64,000 nucleotides of DNA from assembly GCF_000270245.1 (NCBI RefSeq), contig NC_015635.1:3596001-3660000 (forward strand). The letters run 5' to 3'. The position numbers were made by a program, and so were the translations under genes. This document shows positions 25,211-33,075 of this stretch, piece after piece (position 1 is the stretch's first letter; each line of letters opens with the position of its first letter). This DNA comes from Microlunatus phosphovorus NM-1. Lineage in GTDB: Bacteria > Actinomycetota > Actinomycetes > Propionibacteriales > Propionibacteriaceae. The notes under the pieces are model-generated. The model was not told where the DNA came from. It was given only the letters and a program-made list of their open reading frames with translations, and did not search any database.

Positions 25211-26212
25211 TCAGGCGCGGGCGTTCACCTCGTAGGAGGTGTTGATGGACTCGAAGAAGTTGACCAGCTCGAGGGTGTCGTTGGCCGCCGCCATCCACTT
25301 GGCCGGGTTGGCGACGCCGTACACCGGCTCGAAGCCGAGCTCCTCGAATCGCCGGTCGGCCAGGTATTTGACGTAGGTGTTGATGTAGTCCGCGTTCAGC
25401 CCGAGAATCCCGTTCGGCAACAGATCCCGGTTGTACGCCTCCTCCATCGCGACCGCGTCGATGATCATGTCCTGGATCTCCGCTGCGAACTCCTCCGTCG
25501 CGATGTCGGGATTCTCCTCCAGCACGGTCAAGATGAGGTTGATGCCGAACTTGAGGTGCAGACTCTCGTCCCGCACGATCCAGTCGATCAGCGAGCCGAA
25601 GTTGCGCAGCAGATTCCGCTGCCGGAACGACAGCGCCACCATGAAGCCGGAGTAGAACCAGATCCCCTCCAGAATCACGTTGTAGGCAACGAGATTCCGG
25701 ACGAAGTCCTGCTTGCCTGCCACGGTGGAGATGTCGAGGGTCTGCTCGGTCATCCGCTTGATGTAGCGGACCTCGAACTCCTCCTTCGCCGCCATCGAGG
25801 GCACCGTGACATGCGATTCGTAGGCCGCCGCCCGGTCAATCGGGAAGGTCTCCAACACATACTCGAATGCCATGCAGTGGTTGGCCTCCTCCCACATCTG
25901 CTTGGCGAGATAGAGGTGGCATTCCGCAGCATTGACGTACGGGTAGACCCCGAAGGCGAGAGCCTTGTTGACCAACAACTCATTCGGGTTGAAATAGCTC
26001 ATCAGGTGGGTGAGGGCGTGCCGCTCGTCCGGGCTCATCCGGGCGAAGTCGGACAGATCCTCGCCCAGCTGGACCTCGTGCGGGAACCAGGTGTTGGCCA
26101 CGGCCTGGTTGTAGAGGTCGTAGGCCCAGGGATAGGTGACCGGCTTGAGCAGCAGGCCTTCCTGGATGCCGGTGCCGAGGATGCGAGGGTTGGGGTTGGT
26201 GGTGCTGGTCAT
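25211..26212 (-). CDS. nrdB: Ribonucleotide reductase small subunit, apparent class Ic type
   Basis: The 333-residue R2 protein holds the dimetal cofactor that starts the radical. Ligand positions can be placed by spacing: E78 (NPNELLVNK), E109 and H112 (EEANHCMAFEY), E182 (ILEGIWFYSGF), E216 and H219 (RDESLHL). These intervals equal those of E. coli NrdB (84, 115/118, 204, 238/241). E78 replaces the usual Asp, and the residue four after H112, where the radical Tyr should be, is F116. Both changes are those of the Chlamydia-type class Ic R2, which uses Mn/Fe instead of a tyrosyl radical. It lies 103 bp after nrdA on the same strand. Confidence 0.94.
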   Translation of the reverse strand: MTSTTNPNPRILGTGIQEGLLLKPVTYPWAYDLYNQAVANTWFPHEVQLGEDLSDFARMSPDERHALTHLMSYFNPNELLVNKALAFGVYPYVNAAECHLYLAKQMWEEANHCMAFEYVLETFPIDRAAAYESHVTVPSMAAKEEFEVRYIKRMTEQTLDISTVAGKQDFVRNLVAYNVILEGIWFYSGFMVALSFRQRNLLRNFGSLIDWIVRDESLHLKFGINLILTVLEENPDIATEEFAAEIQDMIIDAVAMEEAYNRDLLPNGILGLNADYINTYVKYLADRRFEELGFEPVYGVANPAKWMAAANDTLELVNFFESINTSYEVNARA

Positions 26213-26315
26213 GATCAGATTCCTCTTCGAAGTTCGGTGACATTCGTGGGGGTCAAAAGGCCAAAACGCTGCGACACGCCGACATCCGCCCGCTGAGCCG
26301 CAGGTTCGTCACGAC

Positions 26316-28946
26316 TCACTGGCACGAGTCACATTGCAGGCGCTCTTGGGGGTCGGTAGGGCAGGTGTCGACGAGATCGAGCGCCGGAATGACCGGCGCG
26401 GCGGTCACCGTCGGGACTGCGGGCGCAGGCGTGACTGCGGGCGCGGGCGTGATGGCCGGCGCAGGTGTGATGGCCGGCGCAGGCGCCGGCCGGCGGGCGG
26501 CGCCGAAGCCGCGACGACCCGGTCCACCGCTGCCGGAGGTCGGCCGCAGCTCCGCTGCCTTGTTCACCTTGACCGTGGCCTGCTCAGCCTGGTGCCGCGG
26601 CTTCATGTGCAGGTAATAGGTGGTCTTCACCCCGAGGTCCCAAGCCGCCTGGTAGAGGTCGACCATGGTCGAGATGTCCCGGTCGGCCAGGTAGATGTTG
26701 CGGCTGATCGCCTGGTCGATCCACTTCTGCGCCCGCGCCGCGACGTGCAGGAACGCGTACGGGGACAGTTGGAAGGAGGTCCGGTAGATCGCCGCCAGTT
26801 CCTCTGGGATCCCGTCTATCTCAGACAGATCGCCCTGGTGACGCAGCAGATCCTCGCGGACCTGCTCCCACAGCCCGCGTGCCTTCAGATCGGCGACCAG
26901 ATTGCGGTTCACCTCGAGGAACTTGCCGGCCGAGGTGGAGCGGCTGAAGATCTGGCTGAACTGGGGGTCGATGCCGGGCGTGGTGCCGGCAACGAGACCA
27001 ATCGAGGCGGTCGGAGCGATCGCCAGCAGGGTGGCGTTGCGCATGCCACCTGCCACCTTGCTACGCAGCGCCTCCCAGTTCATCCGGGCGGTCTTGTCCA
27101 CGGTCAACGGTGTGCCACGATCGGCGGCCAGCACCTCGAGAGTGTCGATCGGCACCATGCCCTTCGACCAGCGGGAACCGGCAAAGTTCGGATAGCTGCC
27201 GCGCTCCCTGGCCAGGTCGGCGCTGGCGTCGATGGCGTGGAAGCTGACGAACTCCATCAGCTCGTCGATCAGGTCGTAGGCGGCCTCGCTCTCGTAGCTG
27301 AGACCGAGCCGCTCGACGATGTCGGTGAAGCCCATCACGCCCAGGCCGACTGCACGGTTCTGGTCATTGGAGTGCTCCGACTCCGGCACCGAGGAGATGG
27401 TGATGTCGATCAGGTTGTCGAGCTGACGTACCGCGGAGCGGGCCGAGGCACGGAGCCGGTCCCAGTCGAGCTGAAGCAAGCCGTCGACCTCGACCAGATG
27501 CCGGGAGAGGTTGATGGAGGCCAGGTTGCAGACGGCGACGTTCTCCCGATCCTGTGGCAGGCAGACCTCGGTGCACAGGTTGGACAGGTGAATCGTCCCG
27601 GTGTTGTTGTTCAGGGCCCGGGTGTTGATCGTGTCCTTCCAGATCAGCCACGGGTGCGAGGTGGTCTGCAGCGAGATCAGGATCGACTGGAACTGCTCGC
27701 GCGCCCTCATCTTCTTGAAACGGTGGATGGTGCCGGCCTCGGCCATCGCGACGTACTCGGCGTAGCGAGTGGAGAACGCGGAGCCGTAGAGCTCGACCAG
27801 GTCGGGGGTCTCCAGCGGATCGAAGAGATACCAGTCGGCATCGTCACGGACCCGCTTCATGAACTCGTCGGAGATCCACACCGCGGTGTTGGCGGTCCGG
27901 GTACGCCGGTAGGGGTCACCGGAGTTCTGCCGCAGGTCGAGGAACTGGGCGAAGTCGAGGTGCCAGTTCTCCAGGTAGAAGCACAGTGCGCCGAACTTCT
28001 TGCCGCCCCGGGAGACCGCCCGCAGCGTCGAGTCGATGGTGTGCATGAACGGGATCGGTCCGGTCGAGGTCGTGTTGTTGGACCGGATCGGCGAGCCCTC
28101 GCTGCGCAGCTTGGTGACCGACAGCCCGATGCCACCGGTGCCTTTGGTGAGCCACATGACATCGCGAACCGACTTCGCGATGTGCTCGATCTCGTCCTCC
28201 ATCTGCATCACGAAGCAGTTGGAGAGCTGGGCGTACGAGGTGCCGGCGTTGACCAGGGTCGAGCCCGCCGCGAGGTAGTCCAGCCGCGACATCTTGTCGT
28301 AGAAGCCGAGCGCAGCTTCGGTGGGATCGTCCTCGTTGAGCGCCAGACCCATGGAGACCCGCATCCAGAAGAACTGCGGCACCTCGAGCGAGCGCTTCTT
28401 GCCGGTGCTGGTCGCCTGGTCGGTCAGCATGTAGCGGGTCCGCATGGTCTGCACGCCGATGTAGCGCAACAGGTCGTCGCGGGTGGGATCCAGGGCCGCG
28501 GCAAGTCGGTCCAGATCGAACAGCTCGGCCAGTCGGGAGTCGAGCATGCCGCGGTTCACGGCCTGCTCGATGTAGCCGCCGAAGTAGTCCCGATGCAGCA
28601 GCGCGATCGTCTCCTCGACCGCCTCGCCGAACAGGTCGTGGGTCTGGCCGAACACCTGCTTGTAGAGGGTTTTCACCAGCAGCCGGGCGGCGATCGTGTC
28701 GTACGCCGGGTCGTCCTTCACGTTCTGCAGCGCGACCTGGATGACCGCCTCGTCCAGCTGCTCGGTGGTGATCTGGTCGAACAGCACGATCTCCAGCTCC
28801 GAGCAGATCTGGGTGGTCCGCTCGATCGCCTCCTCCAACCCGCGGGCGGCCGCTGAGATCGACTCCGCGATCTCATAGCCGTCGTACGGCTCCAGGGAGC
28901 CGTCACGCTTGCGGACCCGGATGGTGGCGGCAGTGGATGTGGTCAT
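26316..28946 (-). CDS. nrdA: Ribonucleotide reductase large subunit (class I)
   Basis: The start is ATG 28946, preceded by GAGGGGATC. The 876-residue catalytic subunit reduces ribonucleoside diphosphates. It has an N-terminal ATP-cone (IRVRKRDGSLEPYDGYEIAE), the cysteine of LSNCFVMQ, the active-site loop HLSNLCTEVCLP with its Cys and Glu, the partner Cys in AVCNLASINLS, and the C-terminal redox tail CDSCQ. Between the fold and this tail is an unusual Ala/Pro-rich linker with repeated PAPAIT/PAPAVT units encoded by an 18-bp tandem repeat. It precedes nrdB; transcription is apparently controlled by NrdR boxes and a cobalamin riboswitch. Confidence 0.97.
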   Translation of the reverse strand: MTTSTAATIRVRKRDGSLEPYDGYEIAESISAAARGLEEAIERTTQICSELEIVLFDQITTEQLDEAVIQVALQNVKDDPAYDTIAARLLVKTLYKQVFGQTHDLFGEAVEETIALLHRDYFGGYIEQAVNRGMLDSRLAELFDLDRLAAALDPTRDDLLRYIGVQTMRTRYMLTDQATSTGKKRSLEVPQFFWMRVSMGLALNEDDPTEAALGFYDKMSRLDYLAAGSTLVNAGTSYAQLSNCFVMQMEDEIEHIAKSVRDVMWLTKGTGGIGLSVTKLRSEGSPIRSNNTTSTGPIPFMHTIDSTLRAVSRGGKKFGALCFYLENWHLDFAQFLDLRQNSGDPYRRTRTANTAVWISDEFMKRVRDDADWYLFDPLETPDLVELYGSAFSTRYAEYVAMAEAGTIHRFKKMRAREQFQSILISLQTTSHPWLIWKDTINTRALNNNTGTIHLSNLCTEVCLPQDRENVAVCNLASINLSRHLVEVDGLLQLDWDRLRASARSAVRQLDNLIDITISSVPESEHSNDQNRAVGLGVMGFTDIVERLGLSYESEAAYDLIDELMEFVSFHAIDASADLARERGSYPNFAGSRWSKGMVPIDTLEVLAADRGTPLTVDKTARMNWEALRSKVAGGMRNATLLAIAPTASIGLVAGTTPGIDPQFSQIFSRSTSAGKFLEVNRNLVADLKARGLWEQVREDLLRHQGDLSEIDGIPEELAAIYRTSFQLSPYAFLHVAARAQKWIDQAISRNIYLADRDISTMVDLYQAAWDLGVKTTYYLHMKPRHQAEQATVKVNKAAELRPTSGSGGPGRRGFGAARRPAPAPAITPAPAITPAPAVTPAPAVPTVTAAPVIPALDLVDTCPTDPQERLQCDSCQ
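26418..26489 (-). repeat. Four tandem 18-bp units encoding the NrdA Ala/Pro linker
   Basis: Units at 26418-26435, 26436-26453, 26454-26471 and 26472-26489 are near-identical GGC-rich 18-mers. They encode a six-residue Ala/Pro pattern (ITPAPA type) between the NrdA body and its redox-active C-terminal tail. Copy number could vary without breaking the frame. Confidence 0.85.
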
Positions 28947-29099
28947 GAGATCCCCTCGTTCCAGACGCAGTGAGTTGCCCGCGATCAAGCGAGAGGTACG
29001 GCGAACCGGGCCTGACCCTGAGGGGTCGGCGGCCGAGGTCGTCGCTGGCCCTCCCACGAGGCCACGGACGCACGCCCGTGGAGTCGGTCCACGAGCGAT

Positions 29100-29275
29100 A
29101 GCGGGCAGGTCTTCGGACTTGCGAGCTGCGCGTACGCGCCCGATCGGACGAGCACGCGGGGCCTACTGACCGTCGCTTCCCGGGATCACTCCCAGTGCTG
29201 ATGACGGCGGTCGTTCTCGCTCACCGCTGCGGGGCAGTTCCGGTCTCACACCGGATTCCCTCTTACGACGACCAC
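29100..29275 (-). promoter_or_regulatory. Cobalamin riboswitch upstream of nrdAB
   Basis: Read on the minus strand, the segment contains the consecutive conserved boxes of the cobalamin riboswitch: GAGGGAATCCGGTGTGAGA, CCGGAACTGCCCCGCAGCGG, GTCAGTAGGCC and CGAAGACCTGCC. It lies about 150 bp before nrdA in the sense orientation. In Streptomyces coelicolor a riboswitch of this type shuts down the B12-independent class I enzyme when cobalamin is available to the class II enzyme NrdJ. Boundaries are approximate; the expression platform would lie between 28947 and 29100. Confidence 0.92.
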
Positions 29276-29308
29276 TCTGGCTGAGCGGCCGAACCAGCTA
29301 CGTCGACC

Positions 29309-29352
29309 ACCATATCTGGTGATTGCCCGTTTGTAACTACCCAGATGTAGTT
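29309..29352. promoter_or_regulatory. Tandem NrdR-like boxes in the nrdAB promoter
   Basis: Two related dyads, ACCATATCTGGT (29309-29320) and ACCCAGATGTAGTT (29339-29352), start 30 bp apart, close to the three-turn spacing of paired NrdR boxes. On the minus strand, TTACAA and TATGGT are separated by 16 bp across this area and could be the nrdAB promoter. NrdR is an ATP/dATP-sensing repressor of ribonucleotide reductase operons. Confidence 0.6.
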
Positions 29353-29354
29353 TC

Positions 29355-29411
29355 TTGAGATCCGCACGACACTCTTCTGATATTGATTGGCCAGCCAGTC
29401 ACATGACTGGC
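29355..29411 (+). promoter_or_regulatory. Promoter and operator palindrome of the nucleotidyltransferase/HEPN pair
   Basis: TTGAGA (29355-29360) and TGATAT (29378-29383) are separated by 17 bp. Downstream, 29394-29411 form the dyad GCCAGTCA-CA-TGACTGGC, followed by a half-similar ACTAGTCAT just before the ATG at 29423. This is the placement expected for an autoregulatory site of a toxin-antitoxin operon. Confidence 0.6.
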
Positions 29412-29422
29412 ACACTAGTCAT

Positions 29423-30016
29423 ATGTACTTCAGCGAACCTTTCGGCGGAGTCGTGCCAGGAGCCCGAGGGGCCGTCCTTGCCGCTTTGATGCGCACCGGC
29501 ACCCCGATGACCGGACGGCAGATCCATGGCCTGCTCGCGGACCGATATAGCTTGTGGACCGTTCAGCAGGCCCTCAAGGAGAGCGCCCAACTGGGTTTGA
29601 CCAGCACCGCCGTGGTTGGTCGAGCGGGCGTGCATTCGATCAACGAAGACCATGTCGCGATAGTCGCGCTGCGCAGGTTGCTGAGCCCGATCGACAACCT
29701 CGCCGATGTCGTGCGCGATGCCTGCGAGGACGATATCCAGGCGGTGATCCTCTTCGGCTCTGTAGCTCGTGGCGAGGCGCAGCCCGCAAGCGACGTCGAC
29801 CTGGCCGTCATCGCTCCACCAACCTGGGACGGGAGAATCCGACTAGAGGATGCCGTGAGGTCGCGACTCGGCAACGAGTGCGACATCATCCACCTGAGCA
29901 TGGAGCAGTTCCTCGCGCAGCCCACCCGTCGTGAGCCGGTGGTAGCCGAGATCCTCCGTGATGGGATTGCCCTCCTCGGCGAAGTCCCACGTGCCGACCT
30001 GCGGAGTGCCTCATGA
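29423..30016 (+). CDS. Nucleotidyltransferase (MNT-type) with N-terminal winged helix
   Basis: The ~197-residue protein has an N-terminal winged-helix-like part (VLAALMRTGTPMTGRQIHGLL, residues ~15-60) and a minimal nucleotidyltransferase domain. The latter carries the hallmark GSVARGEAQPASDVDLAV (~residue 112; pattern G-S-x(2)-R-G-x(5)-S-D-x-D-L) and a third acidic residue in ECDIIHLS. I chose ATG 29423 (MYFSEPFGG) over an upstream in-frame start because it follows the palindrome. Its stop overlaps the HEPN gene start by 4 bp. Such pairs act as toxin-antitoxin systems in which the MNT protein modifies the HEPN toxin. Confidence 0.85.
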   Translation: MYFSEPFGGVVPGARGAVLAALMRTGTPMTGRQIHGLLADRYSLWTVQQALKESAQLGLTSTAVVGRAGVHSINEDHVAIVALRRLLSPIDNLADVVRDACEDDIQAVILFGSVARGEAQPASDVDLAVIAPPTWDGRIRLEDAVRSRLGNECDIIHLSMEQFLAQPTRREPVVAEILRDGIALLGEVPRADLRSAS

Positions 30017-30411
30017 CGGGAGAGCACCGGGCGTATGCGAGGAATTTCCTGACCAAAGCCGAGGACTACCTCGCCTCCGCCGAGGACAACCTCACCATGG
30101 AACGCCCGACTCCAGCCGCCGGAGACGCCATCCACGCTGGAATCAGCGCCAAGGACGCGACCGTCACGGCACTGACTGGGATGACAAGCAAGGGGCAGAA
30201 CCACGCCACCGCCGCAAAGGAACTCAGGCAGGCGCTCGGACGTCGCAACGACGCGAGTGCCGCCGAACGTGCCTTACGCGAGTTGCTGTCATCCAAGGCA
30301 GAAGTCGAGTACGGAACGACGCTGATCACCCTCGTGAAAGCGGAGGCTTTGGTCCGCCGAGCGCGAACCCTCGTTGAACTCGCGAGGCAGATCACGCTTC
30401 TGGGCCACTGA
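30013..30411 (+). CDS. HEPN-domain-like protein, partner of the nucleotidyltransferase
   Basis: The 132-residue all-helical protein follows the MNT gene with a 4-bp overlap. The helix pattern and the AAGDAIHAGISAKDATVTAL and SSKAEVEYGTTLIT segments are HEPN-like. The catalytic R-x(4-6)-H motif of RNase HEPN toxins is not evident, so it may be a non-nucleolytic variant or the assignment may be at superfamily level only. The coupled position is the main support for function. Confidence 0.7.
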   Translation: MTGEHRAYARNFLTKAEDYLASAEDNLTMERPTPAAGDAIHAGISAKDATVTALTGMTSKGQNHATAAKELRQALGRRNDASAAERALRELLSSKAEVEYGTTLITLVKAEALVRRARTLVELARQITLLGH

Positions 30412-30734: not shown

Positions 30735-31865
30735 TCAACTCGCTGGTGGCAGCCGATCGGGGTCCCAGCCAAGCTCGGCGATGGCCCGGTCGAAGGCGTA
30801 GCGATCGGTCATCCCGGCCACGTAGGCGACCGCGGCCCGCACCCGGTCGTCGGCCGGAACGTCGAACGCGGCCGGCGACGGCATCCGGTCGGGCTGCTCG
30901 ACATAGAACTCCACCAAGGCCCGGAGCACCTCGACCACCGCCCGCGACTGCGCCAGGGAGGCTGGACGGACATAGATCCGCTCGTAGTTGAACGCCCGCA
31001 AGACGGCGAGCGCCGAGGCCTCGGCAGGTTCCATGCCGACCTCGCCATAGCGGTCGACCGCGTGGATGGCGGCCCTGATGAAGGTCCGCAACTGGTCCCG
31101 ACGGGTGCGACCACAGATCTCCGCGACCTCGGCCGGGATGTCGGCCTCGGCCACGATCCCGGCATGGACGGCGTCCTCGAGATCGTGCGCGCAGTAGGCG
31201 ATCCGGTCGGCCCAGCTGACGATCTCCCCTTCGATGGTGCTCGGCGCGGGCCGGGACCAGGAGTGGTTGCGGATCCCGTCGAGCGTCTCCAGGCACAGGT
31301 TCAACGGGGCGAGCACGACATCGGCTCCCCACGGCCCATGGTCATACCCCTCCGGGATGAACGCGTCGAACGCCTCCTCGCTCGCATGTCCACCGGGACC
31401 GTGACCACAATCGTGACCGAGCGCGATCGCGTCGACGAGAGCGACGTTAGCGCCGATCCCCCGGGCGATCGAGGTCGCGACCTGGGCTACTTCGATGGCG
31501 TGGGTGAGCCGAGTCCGCTGGTGGTCGCGTGGGTAGACGACCACCTGAGTCTTGCCGGCAAGCCGCCGGAAAGCAGTCGAGTGGACGATCCGGTCCCGGT
31601 CTCGCTCGAAACAGGTGCGTTCCGGATCGGGAGACTCCGGGCGTGCCCGGGTGCCGGCGCCGCGGCCACGCGTCGCCTCCGGACGAAGGAGCAGGTCCTC
31701 CCACTCCTCTCGCCGCTCGCGGGGGAGCACCGGACCGGGACCGGTCAGCGCATGGGAGGTGGCATGGGCACGGACCAGGTGCGTACCCGCGTGTCCCTGC
31801 ATCGTGGCCGCCCACTGCTGGGCACGCTCGGAGATATCTCGTTCGCCGGGGCGCTGCTCAGCCAC
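30735..31865 (-). CDS. dgt: Deoxyguanosinetriphosphate triphosphohydrolase-like HD protein
   Basis: The ~376-residue HD-domain enzyme hydrolyses dNTPs to deoxynucleosides and triphosphate. Metal ligands are seen in TRLTHAIEVAQVA and in LGHDCGHGPGGHASEEAF; FRRLAGKTQVV is the usual entry segment. I take GTG 31865 (VAEQRPGERD) as the start, overlapping the dusB stop by 8 bp; the frame stays open upstream but would mirror dusB. The dusB-dgt order and the nearness of dnaG in the wider neighbourhood match other actinobacteria. Confidence 0.93.
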   Translation of the reverse strand: MAEQRPGERDISERAQQWAATMQGHAGTHLVRAHATSHALTGPGPVLPRERREEWEDLLLRPEATRGRGAGTRARPESPDPERTCFERDRDRIVHSTAFRRLAGKTQVVVYPRDHQRTRLTHAIEVAQVATSIARGIGANVALVDAIALGHDCGHGPGGHASEEAFDAFIPEGYDHGPWGADVVLAPLNLCLETLDGIRNHSWSRPAPSTIEGEIVSWADRIAYCAHDLEDAVHAGIVAEADIPAEVAEICGRTRRDQLRTFIRAAIHAVDRYGEVGMEPAEASALAVLRAFNYERIYVRPASLAQSRAVVEVLRALVEFYVEQPDRMPSPAAFDVPADDRVRAAVAYVAGMTDRYAFDRAIAELGWDPDRLPPAS

Positions 31866-33075
31866 CGGACACCCCGATCTCGGCATCAGCCAGCTCCAGA
31901 TCGACCGCCAGCGGATCGTCCAGCCAGTGCTCGGGCAGCGCGACCTTGGCCCGTGGAGAGCCTTGCCGACCGCGCGGCAGTCCCAGCTCGCCGACCGGAA
32001 ATGCCGCCGCCGGGTCCAGCAGAGCCAAGGTGTCATCGAGCTCGTCGAAGCCCGCCACCAGCCCCAGCGCGCGACGGACTTCACCACCGACCGGGAAACC
32101 CTTGAGATACCAGGCCATGTGCTTGCGCATCTCGCGCAGCCCATGGTGTTCGTCGCTGTAGCCCACCAGCAGCTCAGCGTGCCGTCTGATCATGGAGGCC
32201 ACCTCGCCCAAGGTCGGCAACGTCTTGGAGGCGAAGCCGGCAAAGGCATCGACGAGGTCACGGAACAGCCATGGCCGCCCCAGGCAGCCGCGCCCGATCA
32301 CCACTCCGTCGGCTCCGGTCTGCCGCACCATCTCCAGCGCGTCCGCAGCCTCCCAGATGTCGCCATTGCCCAGCACCGGGATCGACACGCTCTGCTTCAG
32401 CGCGGCGATCGCCGCCCAATCGGCCTCACCCGCATAGGCCTGCTGCACCGTCCGACCATGCAGCGCGATCGCCGCGCAACCCGCCTGCTCGGCGATCCGG
32501 CCGGCGTCGAGATAGGTCTGGTGATCATCGTCGATGCCGATCCGGGTCTTCATCGTCACCGGGACGCCATGCGGGCTGGCCGCCGCAACCACCGAGGTCA
32601 GGATCGACTCCAGCCAACGCCGCTTGTAGGGCAGGGCCCCTCCCCCGCCCTTGCGGGTCACCTTCGGCACCGGGCAACCGAAGTTGAGGTCGACATGGTC
32701 GACCTCATGCTCGGTGATCAAGATCTCGGTCGCCCGGCCCATGATCGCCGGGTCGACGCCGTACAGCTGGACCGAACGGACCTTCTCCCCGGGATCGAAC
32801 TGCAGCATGCCCAGCGACTTGCGGTCCCCCTCGACAATCCCCCGGCTGGTGATCATCTCGCAGACGAACAGCCCGGCCTGACCACCCGCAGGCACCGCCC
32901 CGGCCTCCGCCTGCTCCCGGCACAACTGCCGGTACGCCGCATTCGTCACCCCCGCCATCGGCGCCAGAATCACCGGCGTATCGACCGCCAACGAACCCAG
33001 CCGCAACCCGAATCCGCCTGCCGCACGCTCCGAAAGCGCCACACCACCATCAGTCCACCCGCCCACCACCGTCAC
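31858..33075 (-). CDS. dusB: tRNA dihydrouridine synthase
   Basis: The ~405-residue flavoenzyme reduces uridines in tRNA. It has VILAPMAGVTNAAYRQLC near the start, the catalytic Cys in DLNFGCPVPKVTRKGGGGAL, TMKTRIGIDDDH, and the phosphate-binding GNGDIWEAADA and GRGCLGRPWLF segments. The start is uncertain: I use GTG 33075, 35 residues before VILAPMAG. A GTG near 33179 and a TTG near 33209 are also in frame. It lies between glyS and dgt on the same strand, with a 104-bp palindrome between it and glyS. Confidence 0.92.
   Translation of the reverse strand: MTVVGGWTDGGVALSERAAGGFGLRLGSLAVDTPVILAPMAGVTNAAYRQLCREQAEAGAVPAGGQAGLFVCEMITSRGIVEGDRKSLGMLQFDPGEKVRSVQLYGVDPAIMGRATEILITEHEVDHVDLNFGCPVPKVTRKGGGGALPYKRRWLESILTSVVAAASPHGVPVTMKTRIGIDDDHQTYLDAGRIAEQAGCAAIALHGRTVQQAYAGEADWAAIAALKQSVSIPVLGNGDIWEAADALEMVRQTGADGVVIGRGCLGRPWLFRDLVDAFAGFASKTLPTLGEVASMIRRHAELLVGYSDEHHGLREMRKHMAWYLKGFPVGGEVRRALGLVAGFDELDDTLALLDPAAAFPVGELGLPRGRQGSPRAKVALPEHWLDDPLAVDLELADAEIGVSGG

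What the first reader, a model, noticed from the sequence alone, without database searches (positions are those of the whole stretch)
25211..26212. NrdB carries the class Ic double substitution (Glu for Asp, Phe for radical Tyr)
By spacing alone, E78-E109-H112-E182-E216-H219 align with the six metal ligands of E. coli NrdB (intervals 31, 3, 34 and 3 are equal). At the first ligand position the residue is Glu rather than Asp, and four residues after H112 the radical Tyr is replaced by F116. These two changes define the Chlamydia trachomatis class Ic protein, which stores its oxidising equivalent in a Mn/Fe centre. A class Ic enzyme here would make DNA precursors without a tyrosyl radical.
Basis: partly seen in the sequence, partly recalled or inferred. 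Interest (0 to 1): 0.8.

Follow-up and report, generated by a model that had tools for sequence, protein, structure and literature searches.

The report
B12-switched class Ic ribonucleotide reductase
This actinobacterial DNA-precursor enzyme lacks the usual radical-carrying tyrosine and very probably uses a manganese/iron centre instead, as in Chlamydia; it belongs to a large, already recognisable family, and an RNA switch for vitamin B12 sits in front of its operon.

Summary
The minus-strand gene 25211-26212 encodes an R2 (NrdB) with ligands E78, E109, H112, E182, E216, H219 and Phe116 at the radical site. An alignment without gaps from residue 57 onward puts E78 on Glu89 and F116 on Phe127 of Chlamydia trachomatis R2c, its closest solved relative; Y118 falls on Ct Tyr129. 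All 80 relatives kept share Glu/Phe. So this is a class Ic-type enzyme, ordinary in Actinomycetota; Mn/Fe chemistry is inferred, not shown.

Two additions. (2) A cobalamin riboswitch (29087-29313, 93 bits) lies upstream of nrdA, and the genome has a B12-dependent NrdJ next to nrdR. Of 73 relatives with enough upstream sequence, 44 have the riboswitch; 42 of those 44 have NrdJ, while 25 of the 29 without it lack NrdJ. Only 4 contrasts are independent, so this is not significant once kinship is counted. The same arrangement is published for Propionibacterium acnes.

Whether Glu/Phe arose once is unresolved (AU p 0.44). New member of a known kind.

The parts
25211..26212 (-). nrdB: class Ic-type R2 subunit, 333 aa; ligands E78 E109 H112 E182 E216 H219, F116 at radical site, W42/W211 putative electron relay, Y327 C-terminal radical-transfer Tyr; Shine-Dalgarno-like GAAGAGGA at 26221-26228
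26316..28946 (-). nrdA: R1 catalytic subunit, 876 aa from ATG 28946 (the GTG at 29057 in the ORF list is taken as an upstream extension); one ATP-cone, NLC and TTYY motifs, C-terminal CDSC; 103 nt before nrdB
   Evidence: roles of the motifs recalled
29087..29313 (-). cobalamin riboswitch aptamer (RF00174), full length 1-189, 93.2 bits against a gathering score of 31.5; ends 140 nt before the nrdA ATG
28947..29086 (-). leader between aptamer and nrdA; SD-like GAGGGG (28952-28957) is paired in the minimum-energy fold, but the fold is no more stable than shuffles (z -0.57, 50 of 200 shuffles as good); no intrinsic terminator-like site found; expression platform not established

Best explanation
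nrdAB encodes a class Ic-type ribonucleotide reductase. R2 binds two metals, most likely Mn in site 1 and Fe in site 2, and O2 activation gives Mn(IV)/Fe(IV). One electron entering through W211 and W42 reduces this to Mn(IV)/Fe(III), which replaces the tyrosyl radical and reversibly oxidises the R1 active-site Cys through the Tyr327 / R1 Tyr-Tyr pathway. Shown here: residues, family, operon, riboswitch aptamer, NrdJ and NrdR in the genome. Inferred: metals, oxidation states, relay role of W211, direction of regulation.
For: Best PDB match Ct R2c, E 1e-68, then S. erythraea R2, E 1e-65; the next is 6zjk at 6e-34. Placement of E78 and F116 on Ct E89 and F127 without gaps. 80 of 80 relatives keep E/F. 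NCBIfam NF007186 at 402.9 bits against a cut-off of 237. Foldseek ranks 1-13 are all Ct NrdB and rank 14 is 6y2n. Own genome has one R2 and a second R1-type enzyme that is NrdJ (PRK06556 at 1615 bits), with nrdR just upstream. Riboswitch at E 8e-23. nrdA found by tblastn on the same strand in 76 of 80 loci; three of the other four show an NrdA end upstream when read by eye, and the fourth (L054) has only 14 nt upstream. Class definitions Phe/Glu = Ic, Tyr/Glu = Id, Tyr/Asp = Ia/Ib from PMC8463856 (passages and one section read). In P. acnes much nrdAB transcription appears to stop before nrdA, and its 5' UTR is annotated with a cobalamin riboswitch (PMC3848588, passages read).
Against: No metal data. 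PMC4118035 (2014, passages read) states that no R2c had been shown to hold Mn/Fe in vivo. The relay Tyr222, reported there as conserved among R2c, is Trp here. Clustering with Ct is unresolved: the careful tree leaves a polytomy in which Asp/Tyr lineages also sit among the Glu/Phe groups. The riboswitch/NrdJ association is not significant after kinship (4 independent pairs, no difference in 2.4 of them on average), and 6 of 73 loci go against it, among them two Microlunatus (L008, L011). No terminator or significant switch fold was found.
Confidence: 0.85

Rival explanations
1. Class Ic-like scaffold but a different metal pair in the cell (Fe/Fe or Mn/Mn); the Phe/Glu pair only shows that no Tyr radical is used.
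For: Metal identity cannot be read from ligands; the all-Glu ligand set also occurs in di-iron monooxygenases (PMC4118035, passages). In the Trp-relay and Phe-relay groups the activation route may differ from Ct.
Against: In the passages I read, the characterised Phe/Glu R2 (Ct) is highly active only with Mn/Fe (PMC4118035, PMC8463856). All ligands and F186 match Ct.
Confidence: 0.1
2. The actinobacterial Glu/Phe clade arose independently of the Ct-type class Ic (convergence), so it works like class Ic but is not in the same clade. This can be true together with the best explanation.
For: In the careful tree the window clade joins only two f46 rows (98/95), while Asp/Tyr rows and the Ct, S. 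erythraea and haloarchaeal Glu/Phe groups form a polytomy. W211 is shared with 18 Asp/Tyr rows.
Against: Holding all 30 Glu/Phe rows together costs only 2.5 log units, AU p 0.44. Joining the window clade and f46 with the Asp/Tyr/Trp clade costs 15 log units, p 0.133.
Confidence: 0.3
3. It is an R2lox-type oxidase rather than a reductase subunit.
For: R2lox also has Glu as first ligand and Phe at the radical position (8 rows with Ala at 186).
Against: F186 where R2lox has Ala (PMC4118035), an adjacent nrdA, and a match to the R2 model far above the best R2lox model (402.9 against 78.6 bits). Tyr327 also speaks for R2, more weakly: 3 of the 8 R2lox-like rows have some Tyr in that poorly aligned column.
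Confidence: 0.01

Closest known systems
Chlamydia trachomatis class Ic R2c (PDB 1syy, 4d8f, 4m1i)
   Same: All six ligands including Glu first ligand, Phe at radical site, W51, F197, Y129 and Y338 equivalents; best sequence and fold match
   Different: 37% identity; relay Tyr222 is Trp211; the operon here carries a B12 riboswitch and the genome has a class II alternative
Saccharopolyspora erythraea R2 (PDB 6y2n; PMC7467353, passages read)
   Same: Actinobacterial Glu/Phe R2 with the same ligands
   Different: 37% identity, keeps Tyr at the relay site, different branch of the tree. The passages read do not call it class Ic; that is my reading of the sequence
Propionibacterium (Cutibacterium) acnes nrdAB with cobalamin riboswitch and nrdRJ (PMC3848588, passages read)
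   Same: Cutibacterium loci L025, L031, L037, L070 have the window's E/F/W pattern and the riboswitch
   Different: P. acnes also has nrdDG; that paper's main text holds neither 'class Ic' nor 'class I' nor 'manganese'. P. acnes itself was not among my loci
Streptomyces class Ia nrdABS B12 riboswitch (recalled; source paper not read)
   Same: B12 riboswitch on an O2-dependent RNR operon beside a class II enzyme (recalled)
   Different: The f4 rows that I take for Streptomyces (large genomes; name inferred) are Asp/Tyr, that is class Ia-like

Membership tests
Class Ic R2 (R2c) | Glu instead of Asp as first metal ligand | tested here: met
   E78 on Ct E89, no gap between; 80 of 80 relatives
Class Ic R2 (R2c) | Phe instead of radical Tyr, four residues after the first ligand His | tested here: met
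   F116 on Ct F127; 80 of 80
Class Ic R2 (R2c) | remaining ligands, Trp51, Phe197 and C-terminal Tyr | tested here: met
   E109 H112 E182 E216 H219, W42, F186, Y327
Class Ic R2 (R2c) | relay Tyr222 (reported as conserved among R2c in PMC4118035; not part of the Phe/Glu definition) | tested here: not met
   W211 in the window and in 80 of 80 relatives
Class Ic R2 (R2c) | Mn(IV)/Fe(III) cofactor, no Tyr radical, activity needs Mn plus Fe | not testable with these tools
   needs purified protein
Class Ic R2 (R2c) | one clade with C. trachomatis R2c | tested here: inconclusive
   AU p 0.44 for all Glu/Phe rows together; polytomy
Class Ia/Ib R2 | Asp first ligand and radical Tyr | tested here: not met
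   E78, F116
Class Id R2 | Tyr/Glu pair | tested here: not met
   Phe/Glu here; references 6sf4 and 6cwo are Tyr/Glu
R2lox | Ala at the Ct F197 position; no C-terminal radical Tyr | tested here: not met
   F186 and Y327 present; the Tyr column separates less cleanly, as 3 of 8 R2lox-like rows have a Tyr there
Cobalamin riboswitch (RF00174) | aptamer match above gathering score | tested here: met
   93.2 against 31.5 bits

The most novel reading that the evidence does not exclude
A widespread actinobacterial branch of class Ic RNR activates its Mn/Fe centre through a Trp-Trp relay (W211-W42) instead of the Tyr-Trp relay of Chlamydia, and cells toggle by B12 riboswitch between this Mn/Fe enzyme and a cobalt (B12) enzyme, so that the choice of metal for DNA synthesis is set by vitamin supply.
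Probability: 0.45. Interest if true: 0.5.

Novelty: new member of a known kind. Interest (0 to 1): 0.32.

Why it matters
In the papers I read, class Ic biochemistry rests on one obligate parasite's enzyme. This family gives free-living sources of the same active site. The natural Tyr-to-Trp swap at the relay position (and Tyr-to-Phe in another Glu/Phe group) makes the electron-injection step of Mn/Fe cofactor assembly testable by comparison. The riboswitch plus NrdJ pairing makes it testable when a cell chooses Mn/Fe over cobalt for DNA precursor synthesis, and weighs against the published idea that class Ic is found primarily in extremophiles and pathogens (PMC4118035, passages read).

Tried and rejected
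Rejected: R2lox (F186, model scores, nrdA beside it). Rejected: Y118 as radical site (alignment without gaps; Ct has Tyr129 at the same place). Rejected: chance or sequencing error (80 of 80 relatives). Considered: convergent origin of Glu/Phe in this clade; not decided. The first quick tree (85 rows) seemed to split the Glu/Phe proteins, but it carried many long branches; the 52-row careful tree leaves it open. For the trees I left out near-copies, the fragment L157 and, also the class Ib, E. coli-type Ia, Id and R2lox rows: one search used 85 and one search used 52 of the 182 aligned rows. The columns of residues 78, 116, 118 and 211 were removed first.

Led nowhere: NrdR-box pattern (recalled consensus) near the riboswitch (1 match in the window with 2 mismatches, 0.76 expected by chance). 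Promoter and terminator scan (no terminator; one promoter-like site on the other strand). Fold of the leader (z -0.57). The AlphaFold model is poor (mean pLDDT 61.8), probably because its 17-row alignment is shallow, so residue geometry was not judged from it. Hogbom's 2004 and 2010 class Ic sequence surveys could not be opened (both identifiers recalled and perhaps wrong), so I cannot say whether they already list this clade or the Trp relay. Searches of print for class Ic with B12 riboswitch, NrdJ and the genera concerned showed no paper joining them among the rows listed (25 of 75 listed; 59: 10 of 10; 87: 4 of 4; 102: 10 of 22; open-licence papers only, mostly seen as listings; passages of PMC4428469, PMC8633580 and PMC8123684 were read and do not join them). 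NrdJ was sought only by similarity to the window genome's own NrdJ (E up to 1e-100), so other class II types, and class III, were not tested.

Full report
WHAT IS THERE. The gene at 25211-26212 is on the minus strand and encodes 333 aa (the plus-strand reading is not the gene). It is an R2 subunit: PF00268 at 248.7 bits and NCBIfam NF007186 at 402.9 bits against a cut-off of 237. Directly upstream, 103 nt away, is nrdA, 26316-28946 (876 aa from ATG 28946, with an SD-like GAGGGG at 28952-28957). NrdA carries one ATP-cone and both R1 domains. Its alignment to the R1 chain 5im3 keeps the NLC and TTYYL motifs, and it ends in CDSC (motif roles recalled).

THE OBSERVATION. The best solved relatives are the three C. 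trachomatis R2c sequence sets (E about 1e-68; one of them, 2ani, is the F127Y mutant) and S. erythraea R2 6y2n (E 1e-65); the next, 6zjk, is at 6e-34. The alignment to 1syy has a single 2-residue gap after query residue 56 and none later, so positions then differ by a constant 11. This gives E78/E89, E109/E120, H112/H123, F116/F127, Y118/Y129, E182/E193, F186/F197, W211/Y222, E216/E227, H219/H230, Y327/Y338, and W42/W51 before the gap. In 80 of 80 loci kept, the thirteen positions checked are identical to the window. In the wider set of 182 aligned rows (177 distinct; some genomes were reached twice), 118 rows with Phe at 186 are Glu/Phe (91 with Trp, 19 with Tyr and 8 with Phe at the relay position); 44 rows with Phe at 186 are Asp/Tyr (18 with Trp at the relay position); 3 are Glu/Leu; 8 rows with Ala at 186, which I call R2lox-like, are Glu/Phe; the other 8 full rows have Leu at 186 (4 Asp/Tyr, 4 Glu/Tyr); one row is a fragment without the first sites; and no row is Asp/Phe.

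WHAT IT IS. The review PMC8463856 (passages and one section read) distinguishes a Phe/Glu pair in class Ic, Tyr/Glu in Id and Tyr/Asp in Ia/Ib. The window protein is Phe/Glu. PMC4118035 (passages read) describes the R2c mechanism: Mn in site 1, Fe in site 2, Mn(IV)/Fe(IV) reduced to active Mn(IV)/Fe(III) by an electron passing Y222 and W51. The present protein keeps W42 (W51) but has W211 for Y222, which that review calls conserved among R2c. So does every one of 80 relatives. Trp can carry an electron and Phe cannot under such conditions (general knowledge), so the relay step should differ among branches; this is inference. Trp at this position also occurs in 18 Asp/Tyr rows with Phe at 186, so it is not by itself a mark of class Ic.

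FOLD. AlphaFold with a shallow 17-row alignment gave mean pLDDT 61.8 and pTM 0.67. Foldseek against the PDB ranked Ct NrdB chains 1-13 and 6y2n 14th, ahead of the other R2 structures among the 50 listed. With this confidence I use it only as a check of fold.

PHYLOGENY. A careful tree of 52 rows, with the trait columns removed, puts the window in a 12-row Glu/Phe/Trp clade (100/100), joined with two f46 rows (Glu/Phe/Tyr; 98/95). Ct joins three f19 Actinomycetota rows (99/89). The S. erythraea type, the type of a haloarchaeal plasmid and the unnamed Saccharibacteria-phylum rows, two Asp/Tyr lineages (L117; L153, L154, L156) and a group of Glu/Leu plus 6zjk-like rows form a polytomy with them; the tree needs at least 4 changes among the Glu/Phe, Asp/Tyr and Glu/Leu states. 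Holding all 30 Glu/Phe rows together is not rejected (p 0.44), nor is holding the 16 Glu/Phe rows outside the window clade and f46 together (p 0.42); joining the window clade and f46 with the Asp/Tyr/Trp clade costs 15 log units (p 0.133). One or several origins of Glu/Phe remain open.

DISTRIBUTION. One search found 580 stretches encoding a relative among one genome per species and kept the best 80; by their record titles most are Propionibacteriales, Micrococcales and Jiangellales (orders recalled from the genus names), with a few MAGs titled Saccharibacteria, Chloroflexi and Pseudonocardiales. Among 296 Actinomycetota genomes drawn from a larger group, 69 had a match at E up to 1e-5, but only the window's own genome and G214 had the close clade (90% identity or more); the others are more distant R2 types. 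In the order sample, 98 of 196 genomes have a PF00268 match; in the window's genus 3 of the 7 listed do (one is the window's own; 20 of 98 negatives are listed, so unlisted genus members cannot be excluded). The gene is therefore patchy.

REGULATION. An Rfam cobalamin aptamer, full length, 93.2 bits, lies at 29087-29313 on the operon's strand, ending 140 nt before the nrdA ATG. The genome also has a vitamin B12-dependent RNR (PRK06556, 1615 bits) with nrdR just upstream. In P. acnes the same arrangement is published: an nrdAB leader annotated with a cobalamin riboswitch, transcription that largely seems to end before nrdA, and an nrdRJ operon without one (PMC3848588, passages read); that paper's main text does not mention class Ic. 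I then asked whether the riboswitch goes with NrdJ. Riboswitches at or above the gathering score, upstream of nrdA on its strand, were seen in 44 of the 80 loci (12 of 16, 15 of 16, 11 of 16, 3 of 16 and 3 of 16). NrdJ (similar to the window's, E up to 1e-100) was found in 50 of 80 genomes (37 of 40; 13 of 40). Of the 80 loci, 73 hold the nrdA start and at least 500 nt upstream; 7 were dropped (L002, L013, L036, L040, L054, L069, L073), none of which had a riboswitch hit. Riboswitch and NrdJ: 42. Riboswitch without NrdJ: 2 (L030, L033, both MAGs, where absence may be incompleteness). NrdJ without riboswitch: 4 (L008, L011, L028, L064; a permissive search of these found none). Neither: 25. Fisher p is 3e-13, but on an R1+R2 tree (quick method) there are only 4 independent contrasts, in which the riboswitch goes the same way in 1.6 on average, the other way in 0 and does not differ in 2.4, so the corrected test cannot reach significance. 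L008 and L011 are Microlunatus, so the switch is not fixed even near the window.

MECHANISM. Most likely nrdAB is the O2-dependent, B12-independent back-up to NrdJ: plentiful cobalamin binds the leader and lowers nrdAB expression; scarcity releases it. The 25 loci with neither NrdJ nor switch are mainly Microbacteriaceae, with Demequina and two Saccharibacteria MAGs, as expected if shutting nrdAB off would be harmful there. The expression platform was not identified.

STANDING. The protein is a class Ic-type R2 by the sequence tests made here except the relay Tyr, which is not part of the Phe/Glu definition. The chemistry is inferred. The find is a member of a known kind; the relay change and the riboswitch/NrdJ pattern are modest additions that I did not find joined to class Ic in print (open-licence papers only, mostly listings, and the key class Ic surveys could not be opened).

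Noticed in passing
L113, L122, L123 (genomes G100, G078, G292): R2 proteins with Glu as first ligand and Leu, neither Tyr nor Phe, at the radical site (HADSLLYM), Tyr at the relay position and a C-terminal Tyr; an R1-like match starts downstream in L113. A possible further Tyr-free R2 type.
   Followed up: partly
Suggests transfer from actinobacteria, perhaps their hosts. In L069 short ORFs lie between the nrdA end and nrdB.
   Followed up: partly
   Followed up: partly
window 29387-30016 and 30013-30411, + strand: Divergent from the riboswitch: a nucleotidyltransferase-domain protein (PF18765, PF01909) overlapping a small ORF with no Pfam match; looks like an MNT/HEPN-type pair (the HEPN label is recalled from appearance).
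   Followed up: no
window 30735-32144, - strand: HD-domain protein with phosphohydrolase-associated domain (PF01966, PF13286), probably a dNTP triphosphohydrolase, about 1.4 kb upstream of the riboswitch of the dNTP-making nrdAB.
   Followed up: no
L041 7373-7628, L004 614-764, L005 713-861: Second cobalamin riboswitches near the nrdAB locus in some relatives, on the opposite strand, presumably in front of other genes.
   Followed up: no
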